From positions 1-43,001 of IMG/VR virus record IMGVR_UViG_3300021957_000087: 43,001 bases of DNA; one strand, written 5' to 3'. A program made the translations under genes and the position numbers. Under the pieces are notes generated by a model, which was not told the DNA's origin, searched no databases, and saw nothing but the letters and a program-made list of their open reading frames with translations. Origin of the DNA: a virus. This document shows, one piece after another, positions 11,010-34,202 of this stretch. Every line of letters starts with the position of its first letter. Positions within the stretch are counted from its first letter, which is position 1.

Positions 11010-14000
11010 ATGAGCGAAAAAGAATATATTGTAAGTTTAAACAAGGGCGTAGACTACGCAGGCTTCAATCAAGAAATGATTGCTAAAACTGGTGGCGGAG
11101 ATATTCCAGGACGCTCTGTTGTTGTTGCAAATGCAAGACCAGCTTCGCAACGTAATACACACTATAGTTTAACAGATGTAGAAGCTGATACATTAAAAAA
11201 CGATAACAGAGTGTATGCAGTTACATTACTGCCAGAACTAGATCCAGATCTTAGTATTGGATTTGATACAACTCAGACAGGTAACTTTACAAAAACTACA
11301 TTAGACCGCGGTGATTTCCTAAACTGGGGTATGCGTAGAATGAATGAAATCGTTAATCCTTATACAGGAGTTAATGCAGCGGCCGGCGGATATAATTACA
11401 CACTAGACGGATCAGGCGTTGATGTTGTTATTATGGATAGTGGACTACAAATAGATCATCCTGAATTTCAAGATGCAAACGGTGTAAGTAGAGTTGTAGA
11501 ACTTGACTGGACAACAGCTAGTGGTATTGCTGGTATGCCTGCTCAAAATGCAAATTACTATAGAGATTATGATGGACATGGTACACACGTTGCAGGTACA
11601 GCCGTAGGTAAAACATACGGTTGGGCTAAGGGATCTAAAATTTATAGTTTAAAACTTGCAGGACTAGAAGGTTCAGGGGACAGCGGAACTGGTACAAGCA
11701 CAACATATGCGTTTGATTGCATTAAAGAATGGCACAACGCTAAGCCAATTGATCCTGCGACTGGAGCAAAACGACCAACAGTTGTAAACATGAGTTGGGG
11801 ATATCTACGTTACTACGACACAGTTACTAGTATGACATATCGTGGCGTTTCAAAAACTGGAACAGATATTGATAGTAGTGCAAAGCGTTGGGCATTTGGT
11901 CTTCCACCAAATTGGAACGGTGCTAGATATAGAACAAACGTAAGAGTTGATTCAGTTGATGTTGATATGGAAGAACTAATTGATGCAGGCGTACACGTTA
12001 TGGTAGCAGCTGGCAACAGAAGTCATAAAATTGACGTACTAGGTGGTGACGATTATGATAACGTACTTGTTGCTAATACCGGATCAGTGAATTATCAACG
12101 TGGTTCATCTCCTTACAGTACAAGAGCGCATATAGTTGGTAATATAGATAGTTCAATAAATGCAAACGGATTAGAGCAAAAGGCATCGAGCTCAGAAGCA
12201 GGACCCGGTGTTAGTGTTTATGCGCCTGGTACTGATATTATGAGTGCAATGAGTACTACTAATGCTTTCAGTGCTACTACTCTTAATAATCCTTATCCAG
12301 CAAATTCAAGTTTCTTAATTAATAATATAAGCGGCACCAGTATGGCATCGCCACAAGTGGCTGGAATGACAGCATTATGGTTACAAATAAATCTTAATGC
12401 AACACCTGCACAAGGATTAGCGTTTGTTAATTCCACTGCAAAAACTGCAAAAATTTATGATACCGCTTCGCCTGCTACTGACTATACCGATACACGTAGT
12501 TTATTAGGAGCAACAAATAGATTTGCATTTAATAAATTTAACAGTGCAACTCAGCTAACCATGGGCACAGTAGCAGATGCAGTTGCTCCTGGTGCAGTAG
12601 CAACGTATTCATTGTCGTCAAATGCAGCAAGTGTTAATGAAGGCGGCAGCGTAACAGTTACTCTTACTACTACTAATGTTACTAATGGCACGTCAGTTGG
12701 TTATGCCATATCTGGCATCGAAGCAGGTGATATTAGTGAATCACTTACAGGTAACTTTATTGTAACTGGAAATACTGCAACAGCTACATTTAATATAATA
12801 GCAGATGCGACTACAGAAGGCGCACAAACTATGTTATTATCTCTAATTGGAGTTAGTGAAACAGTTAGTATTACTATTAATGATACAAGTGTAGCATCAG
12901 GCTATAACTTAGTTCCAGCAGCCGGTAACGTTGATGAAGGTGGTAATTTAATATTCAATGTTACTACAACAAATGTAGCAGATGCAACTACACTATATTG
13001 GACTGTTACTAATGACAGTGACTTTGCTACTTCAAATGGTAGTTTTGTAATTAACAGCAATGCTGGGTCGTTTACAGTAACACCAACTGCTGATGAAACT
13101 ACTGAAGGCGCGGAAACATTCACTGCTAGTATTAGAACAGGAAGTGTATCAGGAACAATTGTAGCAACATCAAGTACAGTTACTATTAATGATACAAGTA
13201 CAACTCCAGGTGGCGGCGCAGCTTCTTACTCACTCGCTGTAAGTTCATCGTCTCTACAGGAAGGCGAGAAAACAACAGTTACACTTACTACAGCAAACGT
13301 AGACGATGCAACTAACGTACCATACACAATCTCAGGTGTTAATTCAAGTGATTTAGATACTGGTCCGAGAGCAAGTACAGCACTTGCAAATACAACAGGA
13401 TATGGTAGTAACTTCTTCACTAGAGAAGTTAGAACAGCAGGTGTTAGATTAGTTAGTGCAGGCACAGTCGGCGGACAAACAGCGGTACCGGATGCATTTA
13501 TTCAAAAAGTAGCACGTATGTTCCAGTTGTTTACTGATAGCACAGGTGCAGGTATTAACGCAAACAAACAGAATCAACTAATAGAAACATTACTTGGTAA
13601 TACAACATCGTATCACTCACCAAAGCCGACTATACAAAGAATAGCAAGAGGTGCAGGCGGCGACTATACACCAAACTTCTTAGACGATGCAGGCATTCGC
13701 TCTTGGGGATTAGAACCATTGTTTGATGAAACAGTGCAAAACGATATGGTATGGTACTTAAACAGTAGTGGTACTCCTGGAACAGGTGACGAAGATGCAC
13801 AAGAAGTGATTGAACACGTCTTCCATACATTACACATGCATGGTTTGGATGCAGCAACATTAAAAATGTATCCAGATATAAGTGCAGACTGGGCAACTAG
13901 TGACTTACACGCTGCAATGAAAGAAGCAGCAGATGCAAGCAAATGGGATCCAAGTGGATATGCGCCTAATTGGGAAACTGATGCAGGAGAGTTTGAAGTA

Positions 14001-15086
14001 GGCGTTAAAGAATATTTGTACTTGCTTAACTTCTGTATGTTTGAGTACAGCGACTTGTGGGACGGTGGGAGTCTTGCTCCAGAATGGACAGATGACATGC
14101 GTACACAAGCAGGTATACAATCAAACAACCCACTAGGCTATGCATTATTTAATACACATATTGGGGATGTAATTAGTAAGCCGGCCATTGCAACTATTAG
14201 AACAATATTCCAAGATGGTGACGTAGGTGATCCAACAGTAGCAGGCGCTTCAGGCTATGTTGCAGACGCAGCAATTTCACTAACTGGTAACTTTACAGTT
14301 AATTCAAACACTGCTACACTTGAAATTAACACAGCAAAAGATGGAACTACTGATGGTGATAAAACACTAGCATTTGCACTAGACAATGGTGAATCATCAA
14401 CAAACGTTAGTATTACTGATTCAAGCCAAGCTGTTGGCCCAACTTATTATGTTTATCCAGCAGCACAAACAATTGACGAAGGTAGTGCTTTAACAATCAA
14501 TGTTGTTACAACAGATGTAGCAGATGCAACTACACTTTATTGGACTGCAACTAACTCAAGTGATTTTGCTACTTCAAGTGGTAGCTTTGCAATCACAAGC
14601 GACAATGGATCATTTACAGTAACTCCGACAGCAGATGCTACAACAGAAGGTACAGAAAACTTCCAAGTACAGATTAGAACTGGAAGTATTAGCGGAACTG
14701 TTGTAGACACAACAGATGCAATAGCCATTGGTGATACAAGTACTACACCTGCATTTGCCCCGGACTATACAATTACAGTAACAAATAGTGGCAATAGTTA
14801 TACACTAAGCGGAACTGATAGAAATGGTGCAGTAAGTGGATCAAACCCAGCACTAGCATTTAACAGTGGTGATAATGTAAGATTTAATGTAAATGCAAGC
14901 ACATCAAGTGCGCATCCGTTCTACATTAAAACTACACAAAGCACAGGCACTGGTAATCAAGTGACAGGTGCTACAGGACAAGGCACTACACAAGTAGATT
15001 GGACAACAGCTACTGACGGTGCAGGATCATATGGATACCAGTGTTCGATACACCTTGGTATGTGGAATACTATAACAATATCATAA
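11010..15086 (+). CDS. Virion subtilisin-like protease with Calx-beta-like and cupredoxin-like domains
   Basis: A 1,358-residue protein. Residues 1-80 resemble an I9-type propeptide (YIVSL, then LTDVEADTL and DNRVYAVT). A subtilase (S8) domain follows with the full catalytic set: Asp143 in IMDSG, His190 in DGHGTHVAGT, Asn336 in AAGN and Ser444 in GTSMASPQVAG. Residues about 525-1248 carry Calx-beta-like repeats (VNEGG/VDEGG/IDEGS ending INDTS/GDTS). One repeat is split by a domain of about 300 residues (784-1086) containing EVIEHVFHTLHMHG. The last 110 residues resemble a cupredoxin with His1302, Cys1345, His1348 and Met1351. Inference: a self-processing or surface-degrading fibre component in the structural operon. 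Confidence 0.85.
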   Translation: MSEKEYIVSLNKGVDYAGFNQEMIAKTGGGDIPGRSVVVANARPASQRNTHYSLTDVEADTLKNDNRVYAVTLLPELDPDLSIGFDTTQTGNFTKTTLDRGDFLNWGMRRMNEIVNPYTGVNAAAGGYNYTLDGSGVDVVIMDSGLQIDHPEFQDANGVSRVVELDWTTASGIAGMPAQNANYYRDYDGHGTHVAGTAVGKTYGWAKGSKIYSLKLAGLEGSGDSGTGTSTTYAFDCIKEWHNAKPIDPATGAKRPTVVNMSWGYLRYYDTVTSMTYRGVSKTGTDIDSSAKRWAFGLPPNWNGARYRTNVRVDSVDVDMEELIDAGVHVMVAAGNRSHKIDVLGGDDYDNVLVANTGSVNYQRGSSPYSTRAHIVGNIDSSINANGLEQKASSSEAGPGVSVYAPGTDIMSAMSTTNAFSATTLNNPYPANSSFLINNISGTSMASPQVAGMTALWLQINLNATPAQGLAFVNSTAKTAKIYDTASPATDYTDTRSLLGATNRFAFNKFNSATQLTMGTVADAVAPGAVATYSLSSNAASVNEGGSVTVTLTTTNVTNGTSVGYAISGIEAGDISESLTGNFIVTGNTATATFNIIADATTEGAQTMLLSLIGVSETVSITINDTSVASGYNLVPAAGNVDEGGNLIFNVTTTNVADATTLYWTVTNDSDFATSNGSFVINSNAGSFTVTPTADETTEGAETFTASIRTGSVSGTIVATSSTVTINDTSTTPGGGAASYSLAVSSSSLQEGEKTTVTLTTANVDDATNVPYTISGVNSSDLDTGPRASTALANTTGYGSNFFTREVRTAGVRLVSAGTVGGQTAVPDAFIQKVARMFQLFTDSTGAGINANKQNQLIETLLGNTTSYHSPKPTIQRIARGAGGDYTPNFLDDAGIRSWGLEPLFDETVQNDMVWYLNSSGTPGTGDEDAQEVIEHVFHTLHMHGLDAATLKMYPDISADWATSDLHAAMKEAADASKWDPSGYAPNWETDAGEFEVGVKEYLYLLNFCMFEYSDLWDGGSLAPEWTDDMRTQAGIQSNNPLGYALFNTHIGDVISKPAIATIRTIFQDGDVGDPTVAGASGYVADAAISLTGNFTVNSNTATLEINTAKDGTTDGDKTLAFALDNGESSTNVSITDSSQAVGPTYYVYPAAQTIDEGSALTINVVTTDVADATTLYWTATNSSDFATSSGSFAITSDNGSFTVTPTADATTEGTENFQVQIRTGSISGTVVDTTDAIAIGDTSTTPAFAPDYTITVTNSGNSYTLSGTDRNGAVSGSNPALAFNSGDNVRFNVNASTSSAHPFYIKTTQSTGTGNQVTGATGQGTTQVDWTTATDGAGSYGYQCSIHLGMWNTITIS
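12900..13204 (+). repeat. Calx-beta-like repeat, duplicate unit A
   Basis: Encodes about 100 residues (VDEGGNL, NVADATTLYWTVTN, DFATSNGSF, TPTADETTEG, INDTSTT). It is very similar to the unit at 14440-14748, with the interrupted repeat between them, which indicates an internal duplication. Confidence 0.8.
13360..14266 (+). other. Domain of about 300 residues inserted inside a repeat
   Basis: The upstream half of a Calx-beta-like unit (YTISGVNSSDL) stops here, and the downstream half (ISLTGNFTVNSNTATLEI) resumes after it. The insert is helical in character and not repeat-like. It contains a His-rich motif EHVFHTLHMHG at about residues 935-945 and a later EYLYLLNFCMFEYSDLW segment. No family assigned; a metal site is possible. 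Confidence 0.7.
14440..14748 (+). repeat. Calx-beta-like repeat, duplicate unit B
   Basis: This is the second copy of the unit at 12900-13204 (IDEGSAL, DVADATTLYWTATN, DFATSSGSF, TPTADATTEG, GDTSTT). It lies directly before the cupredoxin-like end domain. Confidence 0.8.
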
Positions 15087-32303: not shown

Positions 32304-32685
32304 AGTAACAACTAAGCCGATTGCAAAACCAGAACTTGTGTTACCTAATGTTGATACTGTATCCATGCGAAAAATTGAATGGGTAATAATCACTGAAGAA
32401 AACATGGAAGAAGAAGTTGCTAAATGGACTAAGGGCGGCAAGCCTTTAGCAATATTTGCACTTAACGCAAACGGTTACGAAGCATTAGGAATGAATTTTA
32501 GTGACATACGTGCTCTTGTTCAACAACAACAATCTATAATTGCTGCATATGAAAACTATTATAAAGCTGCAAACCAAGCACTAGATACAGCAGAAACACA
32601 ACGCCAACAAGAAGAAGCCGCTGATGCTGCAAATGCTGAAGCTTTAGAAGAATCACTAGTAGATAAAATAAATCCATTTAAATGA
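32209..32685 (+). CDS. o-spanin (Rz1-like) outer-membrane lipoprotein
   Basis: 158 residues with a lipoprotein signal: basic start, hydrophobic core and lipobox LGAC with Cys24 as the lipidated residue. It overlaps the i-spanin gene by 95 bases in a different frame, an arrangement known for Rz/Rz1. It is much longer than a classical Rz1 and has its own helical stretch (RALVQQQQSIIAAYENYY, AANQALDTAETQRQQ). GGAG lies 10 bases before ATG 32209. The call rests on lipobox and overlap. Confidence 0.75.
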   Translation: MQRQLKVLITSVLGFMMILSLGACSSVPQRIEVTTKPIAKPELVLPNVDTVSMRKIEWVIITEENMEEEVAKWTKGGKPLAIFALNANGYEALGMNFSDIRALVQQQQSIIAAYENYYKAANQALDTAETQRQQEEAADAANAEALEESLVDKINPFK

Positions 32686-34202
32686 TAAAAAATCAACCAG
32701 TATTCCTGGGCCTAAGACTGTGTGAACACGACACAAATATAGCACTGTCAATCGGTTCAAAAGTAAAATACAGAAAAACTGAACGTAATACACAAATAAA
32801 ACACCACTACTACAGTAACTTGTGGGAATGGTTATTTGTGTTAGAAGAATGGAATATAAATGTTAGCGATATTGATGCTATAGGTTTAGTTATAGATGAT
32901 AAAAACTATGAGTGTATTCAAGTAAATGATTACGATGCTCCATATGAAATACTAAATCATCAATACCCTCACTGGGAACAAATAAAGTGTCCAATTTATA
33001 GAATAGACCATCATTATGCACATGTAATGAGTTGCTGGCCCATGGGTATAGAATCTACTACAGACTTTGTATTTGACGGCTTTGGCGACGATGAACGATC
33101 GCATACAATATATAAGAATAAAAAACAAACACACTATGCTAAATTATCCGAAGCAGAGAGTATAGGTAGGTATTTTGGCACAATCGGCGAGCATGTTGGC
33201 ATGAATGGCTATCATTTAGATCATGCTGGTAAATTAATGGGACTAAAGTCATATGGAAATTTTGATTTAGATTTTTATAAACAAATTTCACACTTCGGAA
33301 TGTACGATATTGCTGAACTTTTAAATATACAAAAATGGTATGCATATAAAGGTAGTAAAAACTTAGTAGAATGTGAATGGGTAAACTGGTTACGCACAGT
33401 ACATGACCATTTAGAAAAAATATATCCTAATTATTTTTTAGAGCATTGTAATCCAAATGAAGTAGTTACATACACAGGCGGAATTGCGCAAAATACCTGT
33501 ATTAATACTAAGATTAAAAAGGTAATACCTAACTTACATATACCACCTCACAACTATGATGGCGGGTTAAGTTTAGGTTGTATAGAAGTTTTGCGACAAA
33601 TACATGATGCTGACTCCTTTGATACTTCAGGATTTCCTTTTTGGCAAGATGACCAACATCCTGGTTCAGTTGCATCAACAAAAACCATTAAACAAACTGC
33701 CGAACGTCTTGCAAAAGGAGACATAGTAGGATGGTATCAAGGACACGGGGAAATAGGACCGCGGGCACTAGGTAATAGATCGGTGCTGATGAATCCAAAT
33801 GTAGAAAATGGCAAAGACATTATAAACAGTAAAGTAAAGTTTAGAGAGCCATACAGACCATTTGGTGCATCTGTGTTGTTAGATCATGTAAATGATTATT
33901 TTGAGTGGAACGAACCTAGTCCATATATGCTATATGTGCAAAAAGTTAGAGATCCAAAGGCATTTGCTCCTATTACTCATGTGGATAATACATGTCGTAT
34001 ACAGACTGTAGGGAACGAAAACCCTCTATATGCTGAATTAATAGAAGAATTTAGGAAGCTTACAGGCATTCCTATGTTACTAAACACAAGTTTAAATGTA
34101 AACACAAAACCAATTGCAGGATATAAGTCTAATTGCTGGGATATATTCCACAAAACAGCAATAGACAGTATAGTAATTGGTGACTATACCCTCCAAAAAT
34201 AG
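32682..34202 (+). CDS. Carbamoyltransferase (NodU/CmcH/TobZ family)
   Basis: 506 residues covering both parts of the family. The N-terminal kinase-like YrdC/Kae1-type half has HHYAH (110-114, metal ligands), DGFGDDERSH, HAGKLMGLKSYG and YTGGIAQNTCINTKI. The C-terminal half has GEIGPRALGNRSVLMNP, KFREPYRPFGASVL and PMLLNTSLNVNTKPI. These enzymes move a carbamoyl group from carbamoyl phosphate, via carbamoyl-AMP, to a hydroxyl. In phages the acceptor may be a hydroxymethylated base or a sugar; no hydroxymethylase is seen in this window. It overlaps the o-spanin stop by 4 bases. Confidence 0.88.
   Translation: MIKNQPVFLGLRLCEHDTNIALSIGSKVKYRKTERNTQIKHHYYSNLWEWLFVLEEWNINVSDIDAIGLVIDDKNYECIQVNDYDAPYEILNHQYPHWEQIKCPIYRIDHHYAHVMSCWPMGIESTTDFVFDGFGDDERSHTIYKNKKQTHYAKLSEAESIGRYFGTIGEHVGMNGYHLDHAGKLMGLKSYGNFDLDFYKQISHFGMYDIAELLNIQKWYAYKGSKNLVECEWVNWLRTVHDHLEKIYPNYFLEHCNPNEVVTYTGGIAQNTCINTKIKKVIPNLHIPPHNYDGGLSLGCIEVLRQIHDADSFDTSGFPFWQDDQHPGSVASTKTIKQTAERLAKGDIVGWYQGHGEIGPRALGNRSVLMNPNVENGKDIINSKVKFREPYRPFGASVLLDHVNDYFEWNEPSPYMLYVQKVRDPKAFAPITHVDNTCRIQTVGNENPLYAELIEEFRKLTGIPMLLNTSLNVNTKPIAGYKSNCWDIFHKTAIDSIVIGDYTLQK

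What the first reader, a model, noticed from the sequence alone, without database searches (positions are those of the whole stretch)
13360..14266. Unassigned His-rich domain inserted inside a beta repeat
A Calx-beta-like repeat is cleanly split: YTISGVNSSDL before and ISLTGNFTV after align with an unbroken sister repeat (YAISGIEAGDI, then ESLTGNFIV). The insert of about 300 residues is of a different, helical type and holds EVIEHVFHTLHMHG. Clustered His with nearby Glu suggests a metal site, possibly hydrolytic. An enzyme domain looped out of a fibre repeat would be a notable design.
Basis: partly seen in the sequence, partly recalled or inferred. Interest (0 to 1): 0.62.

Follow-up and report, generated by a model that had tools for sequence, protein, structure and literature searches.

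The report
Mobile metalloprotease-like cassette in phage proteins
Inside a tail protein of a marine cyanophage-type virus sits a 300-residue, probably metal-binding, protease-shaped domain whose gene segment has moved as one sharply bounded 0.9-kilobase unit into many unrelated virus structural proteins.

Summary
In the 1358-residue protein at 11010-15086 a beta repeat is split after ...ISGVNSSDL by about 303-306 residues and resumes at ISLTGNFTV. Relatives with 51-56% identical hosts carry unbroken repeats.

The insert is a recurrent cassette. I gathered 132 loci with it, in about 15 unrelated phage contexts plus free-standing, secreted-looking proteins of marine bacteria. Within a phage subtilase the same site is empty, filled, or filled with a divergent copy in phages about 90% identical in DNA around it. 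Between unrelated hosts DNA similarity starts and stops within a few bases of fixed ends, 906-924 bp apart.

AlphaFold models it confidently (pLDDT 92.6). All 50 structural matches shown are zincin metallopeptidases, but at modest Z (7.3 at best). The conserved motif is E-H-x-x-H, not HExxH, with a downstream Glu invariant in 132 of 132. A remote cellular branch has E-E-x-x-H.

Best reading: a mobile, virion-displayed, metal-dependent peptidase-like domain with a non-canonical site. Mobility is shown; fold and metal site are inferred; catalysis is untested.

The parts
11010..15086 (+). Host ORF, 1358 aa: subtilase, beta repeats, insert, C-terminal cupredoxin-like stretch
11409..12452 (+). Subtilase (S8) domain with D, H and S motifs at 11436-11468, 11571-11597, 12333-12365
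   Evidence: PF00082 E 3.9e-24, 85.9 bits against cut-off 21.8; motif places
12702..12764 (+). Unbroken sister repeat YAISGIEAGDI/SESLTGNFIV
13323..13355 (+). First half of the split repeat, YTISGVNSSDL
13356..14273 (+). Inserted domain (303-306 aa), zincin-like fold predicted; 42-47% identical to copies in Opitutales and a flavobacterium, 59-62% to actinobacterial and Opitutaceae ones
13740..13766 (+). NDMVWYLNS, predicted strand just before the motif helix (candidate substrate 'edge strand')
   Evidence: model strand 131-134; position; role inferred
13803..13844 (+). Motif helix EVIEHVFHTLHMHG: E153 (13812-13814), H154, H157 (13824-13826), H160
   Evidence: 129 of 129 covered loci for E150, E153, H154, H157, H160; places
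13959..13961 (+). Y202, invariant Tyr, candidate catalytic Tyr (inferred)
   Evidence: 130 of 130 covered loci
14010..14015 (+). E219-Y220, candidate third metal ligand (Glu) on predicted helix 210-228
   Evidence: 132 of 132 loci; homologous Glu of L092 pairs with zinc ligand Glu520 of Grimontia collagenase in one alignment row
14274..14300 (+). Second half of the split repeat, ISLTGNFTV

Best explanation
The insert is a copy of a mobile, in-frame protein-coding cassette (about 0.9 kb) that spreads among structural genes of marine T4-like phages. It stays in the protein product as a looped-out domain displayed on baseplate, fibre or virion-associated subtilase proteins. The domain most likely has a zincin (Glu-zincin-like) fold with one metal held by E153/H154 and H157 of an E-H-x-x-H helix plus E219 from a second helix. 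Outside the cell it probably acts as a metal-dependent peptidase on host surface proteins or on neighbouring virion proteins. Shown: the split repeat, the recurrence in unrelated hosts, sharp DNA edges, empty and filled versions of one site, purifying selection, invariant motif residues. Inferred: fold class, metal, ligands, virion display. Guessed: substrate and catalysis.
For: Recurrence: 132 loci; N-flanks form 31 clusters, of which 12 are low-complexity TPT linkers (one type), 5 bacterial, 14 other phage clusters. Tree of 100 distinct copies: 26 hand-given context labels need 37 changes, least possible 25. Same subtilase site: of 67 ORFs, 17 hold the domain and 50 do not. L182 empty versus L180 filled with flanks 87.5-92.7% identical DNA; L184/L185 hold a divergent copy there. 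DNA edges: 235 pairs with unrelated N-flanks start at median -1 bp; 149 pairs with unrelated C-flanks end at median +4 bp; length 906-924 bp. PHROG model 708 (baseplate wedge) runs straight across the S-RIM2 insertion point. Model pLDDT 92.6, pTM 0.92; 50 of 50 rows shown, of 837 chains aligned, are zincin peptidases. Remote branch with EExxH: profile comparison E 2.5e-5, probability 75; its weaker model also meets zincins in 48 of 50 rows, with E196 paired to Ghcol 520, a zinc ligand. dN/dS 0.08-0.25 in 17 of 17 chosen pairs.
Against: No canonical HExxH in any of 129 covered copies. Best Z is 7.3, below 8, where the tool warns of chance arrangements. Foldseek itself gave nothing at E<=0.001 in PDB or viral models. 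No sequence match in PDB or Pfam. The second model is poor (pLDDT 55.2), and among its M1 aminopeptidase rows five of the seven that I could check against recalled residue numbers were one helical turn off register. No coordinates were available, so side-chain geometry is untested. No activity data.
Confidence: 0.5

Rival explanations
1. Pseudoenzyme: a zincin-like domain that has lost catalysis and serves as a metal-stabilised adhesin or receptor-binding module on the virion.
For: The standard HExxH is absent in 129 of 129 covered copies. Hosts are baseplate and fibre-type proteins. The domain sits in linkers and at C-termini as well as in loops.
Against: Five motif-helix residues, E219, Y202 and others never vary across phages and bacteria, more like an active site than a surface patch; the remote branch keeps a Glu at the catalytic position.
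Confidence: 0.3
2. A metal-dependent hydrolase or other enzyme that is not a peptidase (for example acting on glycans), on a zincin-like or new fold.
For: No family library names it; the motif is non-standard; Z values are modest.
Against: All 50 rows shown are peptidases; the EExxH relative L173 is fused to an M6-type metalloprotease domain.
Confidence: 0.13
3. A protein-splicing (intein-like) element that is removed from the product.
For: Clean insertion into unrelated proteins, even inside a subtilase catalytic domain, with empty versions.
Against: The cassette starts DxEYNN or DTGPRAS and ends SGYVVD or similar: no Cys/Ser at the start, no Asn plus Cys/Ser/Thr at the end (splice residues recalled). 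Intein folds do not appear among the rows. It occurs as a C-terminal domain with nothing after it (ORFs ending SGYVPD).
Confidence: 0.02
4. Ordinary surface domain with a chance His cluster, spread only by vertical descent.
For: Within the window's own context (Calx-type) copies form nearly one clade (2 changes over 12 rows).
Against: Unrelated hosts with 90-97% identical cassette DNA and sharp edges.
Confidence: 0.03

Closest known systems
Pro-Pro endopeptidases (PPEP-1/2/3, family M34) and the other Glu-zincins found (M9 collagenases, M30 lugdulysin, BACCAC_01431)
   Same: Predicted order of elements: alpha/beta N part, edge strand, motif helix, then a helical C part with an invariant Glu; best Z 7.3 over 148 residues. 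PPEP-3 layout read in passages of PMC12828418.
   Different: Motif E-H-x-x-H instead of HExxH; 6-12% identity in the rows shown; carried inside phage structural proteins.
EExxH cellular branch (L092 N-terminal copy, L169-L178; unnamed family)
   Same: Homologous by profile comparison (E 2.5e-5): E-x-x-x-H, EY, EW positions shared.
   Different: Glu instead of His in the motif's second position; found in 6 of 177 genomes of one order and in none of 9 viral candidates.
Mobile Ig-like domains of tailed phages (recalled; papers seen only as a listing)
   Same: Promiscuous domains moving between virion proteins.
   Different: Those are small beta domains thought to bind; this is a 300-residue, enzyme-like domain with fixed DNA edges and insertion inside other domains.
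Inteins (recalled)
   Same: Clean in-frame insertion at sites that are empty in close relatives.
   Different: No splice residues; by our reading it stays as a domain.

Membership tests
Glu-zincin metallopeptidase (clan MA(E)) | HExxH on the active-site helix | tested here: not met
   EHxxH in 129 of 129 covered copies; remote branch EExxH
Glu-zincin metallopeptidase (clan MA(E)) | Zincin fold: alpha/beta N subdomain, edge strand, motif helix, C subdomain | tested here: inconclusive
   Favourable: 50 of 50 rows shown are zincins, but Z at most 7.3 and Foldseek alone has no hit
Glu-zincin metallopeptidase (clan MA(E)) | Third ligand Glu in the C subdomain | tested here: inconclusive
   E219 in 132 of 132; homologous E196 ends one alignment at Ghcol 520, its zinc ligand, in a low-confidence model
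Glu-zincin metallopeptidase (clan MA(E)) | Zinc-dependent peptidase activity | not testable with these tools
   needs bench work
Subtilase S8 (host N-terminal part) | Pfam PF00082 above cut-off and Asp/His/Ser motifs | tested here: met
   85.9 bits against 21.8; motif places
Calx-beta (host repeats) | Pfam PF03160 above cut-off | tested here: not met
   15.3 bits against 27; the repeats may still be of this kind
Intein | Splice residues at both ends | tested here: not met
   ends read

The most novel reading that the evidence does not exclude
An in-frame 'domain transposon': a 0.9-kb coding unit with fixed ends that hops between unrelated virion genes, stays in the product and arms the virion with a metallopeptidase of a new catalytic type (Glu-His-x-x-His plus Glu), sometimes inside another protease's catalytic domain.
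Probability: 0.35. Interest if true: 0.8.

Novelty: new variant of a known kind. Interest (0 to 1): 0.62.

Why it matters
If right, marine phages share a movable enzyme-like module that is plugged into fibres, baseplate proteins and a subtilase, which gives a direct handle on how cyanophages deal with host surface proteins. It would also add a non-canonical metal motif to the zincin fold and pose a clear question: how does a bare coding segment with fixed ends move between unrelated genes without splicing?

Tried and rejected
Family libraries gave nothing for the domain: Pfam (only DUF6900 at E 0.13, judged chance), PHROGs; for bacterial versions and the EExxH branch only weak or low-complexity hits, apart from repeats (L088) and the M6 part of L173. 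PDB by sequence: none for the window domain; the family profile gave three histone deacetylase rows at E 0.58-0.7, judged chance; the L092 N-terminal part one row at E 0.9. Foldseek PDB and BFVD: nothing usable. A plasmid search with the EExxH domain found no match; a viral scan with it 9 pattern matches, 0 relatives.

A second model, of the remote L092 copy, was poor. I searched it all the same and give it little weight. Its M1 rows were mixed: with HExxH numbers that I recall from memory, two rows (8cgp, 9o5k) give exact register and five (4f5c, 6ydx, 4r5t, 4xo4, 5lhd) are off by one turn. I could not check lugdulysin's ligands in print (listings only).

Paper searches (listings) named no such domain. 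Passages, not whole texts, were read of PMC12828418, PMC3890501, PMC7029224, PMC3037559, PMC9304777 and PMC11458858. 'Not in print' is therefore only 'not found in these searches'.

Context labels used in the tree (such as 'gp7-like') were my own shorthand, not annotations; 32 of 132 loci were left out of the tree (no label, under 260 aa, or identical copies). The edge count used 53 of 132 loci, those with the EYNN-type lead-in; the window's own copy has another lead-in and is not among them. Overshoots: 8 of 235 left (over 30 bases), 7 of 149 right (over 40 bases).
Full report
What is there. The window is a 43,001-base virus record from what looks like the structural region of a T4-like marine phage: neighbouring ORFs match tail fibre, gp9/10-like connector and clamp-loader families. 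The ORF at 11010-15086 encodes 1358 residues: a subtilase domain above Pfam's cut-off, beta repeats, the insert, further repeats and a C-terminal stretch that matches phrog_27200. The split repeat reads YTISGVNSSDL (13323-13355), then about 303-306 residues, then ISLTGNFTV (14274-14300); a sister repeat at 12702-12764 is unbroken. In the 23 related loci found with the N-terminal 782 residues, 4 hosts carry the insert (L133-L136). L144, L145 and L150, 51-56% identical, carry unbroken repeats of the same kind.

How widespread it is. By translated search 85 of 50,697 phage records hold it at E<=1e-5, all Synechococcus or Prochlorococcus phages, about 65-69% identical, one place in each record. 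In IMG/VR, 172 of 174 pattern-matched stretches encode a relative, 80 of which I kept. A scan with a bacterial copy gave 38 more of 39. In the collection of 84,980 species genomes 12 of 171 pattern-matched stretches are relatives, by record title in Actinomycetota/Acidimicrobiia, Opitutales and other Verrucomicrobiota, and Flavobacteriaceae. Those ORFs are mostly short, with the domain last, and by eye begin with signal- or lipoprotein-like starts, so they look secreted.

It is a mobile cassette. With both flanks of 132 loci compared, N-flanks form 31 clusters among the 125 with enough flank: 14 phage clusters, 5 bacterial, and 12 that are TPT-rich linkers which the low-complexity filter cannot join. 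Hosts include baseplate wedge and short tail fibre families. Subtilases are used in several ways: after the domain in a beta repeat (the window), in a loop after the catalytic Asp motif, in an earlier stretch, and at the C-terminus. For the S-RIM2 host the PHROG baseplate-wedge model aligns 1-704 before and 702-1383 after the insert, so the family model lacks it. On a tree of 100 distinct copies 26 context labels need 37 changes where 25 is the least; one subtilase-loop label alone needs 5 changes over 6 rows (quick tree, many weak branches). The clearest case is the subtilase loop. Of 67 ORFs found with the C-terminal part of one such host, 17 hold the domain and 50 do not. L182 reads DHPEF-EDAAGV-SRVQQ; L180 has the domain there while its flanks are 87.5% identical over 2.6 kb on the left and 90.8-92.7% over 3.5 kb on the right; L184 and L185 hold a much more divergent copy at the same place. 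The Asp, His and Ser motifs of the subtilase remain in L025, L034, L048, L071, L073 and L081, which hold the domain in that loop; in the other hosts tried my patterns found only some of them.

Fixed DNA edges. Copies 90-97% identical in DNA sit between unrelated flanks, for instance L071 and L054 (97.5% over 903 bp) or L048 and L060 (91.8% over 927 bp). Among the 53 loci with the EYNN-type lead-in, 235 pairs (at least 85% identical) with unrelated N-flanks begin to match at a median of 1 base before the Asp codon of DxEYNN. 149 pairs with unrelated C-flanks stop at a median of 4 bases after the Tyr of SGY. The unit is 906-924 bp. L065 and L076 are 99.7% identical over 6.9 kb from that left edge on, with unrelated sequence before it. 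I found no obvious target duplication at the L180/L182 site, but looked only by eye, and no mechanism of movement is shown. Copies evolve under purifying selection (dN/dS 0.08-0.25 in the 17 pairs I chose).

What the domain is. AlphaFold with 53 sequences gives pLDDT 92.6 and pTM 0.92: two strands, two helices, a strand, a short strand at 131-134, the motif helix 144-163, and a mainly helical C-terminal half with helix 210-228. Foldseek alone found nothing useful. Realignment of its candidates (837 chains) put zincin metallopeptidases in all 50 rows shown: Pro-Pro endopeptidases (best 6fpc_D, Z 7.3, 4.1 A, 148 residues), the related M34 toxin domain, M9 collagenases, M30 lugdulysin and a Bacteroides metallopeptidase. 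The Z values are below the tool's comfort line of 8; what persuades me is that several zincin families come up together and that the conserved motif falls on the expected helix, after a short strand as in PPEP-3 (passages of PMC12828418).

The metal site. Across all 132 loci E150, E153, H154, H157 and H160 are invariant in the 129 covered, Y202 in 130 of 130, E219 and Y220 in 132 of 132; H162 varies. L092 carries a second, remote copy with E-E-x-x-H; its branch (A3) is homologous (E 2.5e-5, probability 75), and L-E-E-x-x-H is invariant in its 10 rows. Shared by both branches are E153, H157 and E219. A weak model of the L092 copy again meets zincins in 48 of 50 rows, and in the Grimontia collagenase row the alignment ends with its E196 (the counterpart of E219) on residue 520. 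Glu520 is the third zinc ligand there, with His492 and His496 (passages of PMC9304777). This agrees with a Glu-zincin arrangement in which Glu takes the first His place. In the phage branch His stands where the catalytic Glu would be, so either the roles of the two are exchanged or catalysis is lost. I cannot decide this without coordinates or a bench test.

Function. The free-standing bacterial forms look extracellular and the phage forms sit in virion-type proteins, so an extracellular target is likely: host surface proteins or neighbouring virion proteins. I put about 0.95 on mobility, 0.75 on the zincin-type fold, 0.7 on a bound metal and 0.45 on peptidase activity; these are my estimates. 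It fails one defining feature of zincins (HExxH), so I do not file it as a member, only as a domain that probably works like one or descends from one.

Noticed in passing
window 14724-15083: C-terminal stretch of the same protein has HPFYI...YGYQCSIHLGMWN, a His...Cys-x2-His-x2-Met pattern like a blue-copper (cupredoxin) site (pattern recalled); matches phrog_27200. A homologue, L137, has two similar stretches.
   Followed up: no
L065 and L076: 99.7% identical over 6.9 kb from the cassette's left edge onward but unrelated before it: a flank swap exactly at the cassette edge.
   Followed up: partly
L092 4657-6870: One bacterial ORF holds both a remote EExxH copy and an EHxxH copy in tandem.
   Followed up: partly
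L173 1177-3345: EExxH domain fused to an M6-type metalloprotease domain (TIGR03296 E 1.3e-29, 104 bits against cut-off 110.8).
   Followed up: no
L109-L117, L119, L123, L124, L127, L129, L132: In a set of virus contigs, some very long, the domain is held between TPT-rich repeats with a Cys just before and after it (CYVAGPL ... GYVADDC), perhaps a disulphide clamp.
   Followed up: no
window 32682-34202: ORF with a strong match to Nol-like carbamoyltransferase (phrog_1601, E 5.1e-167).
   Followed up: no
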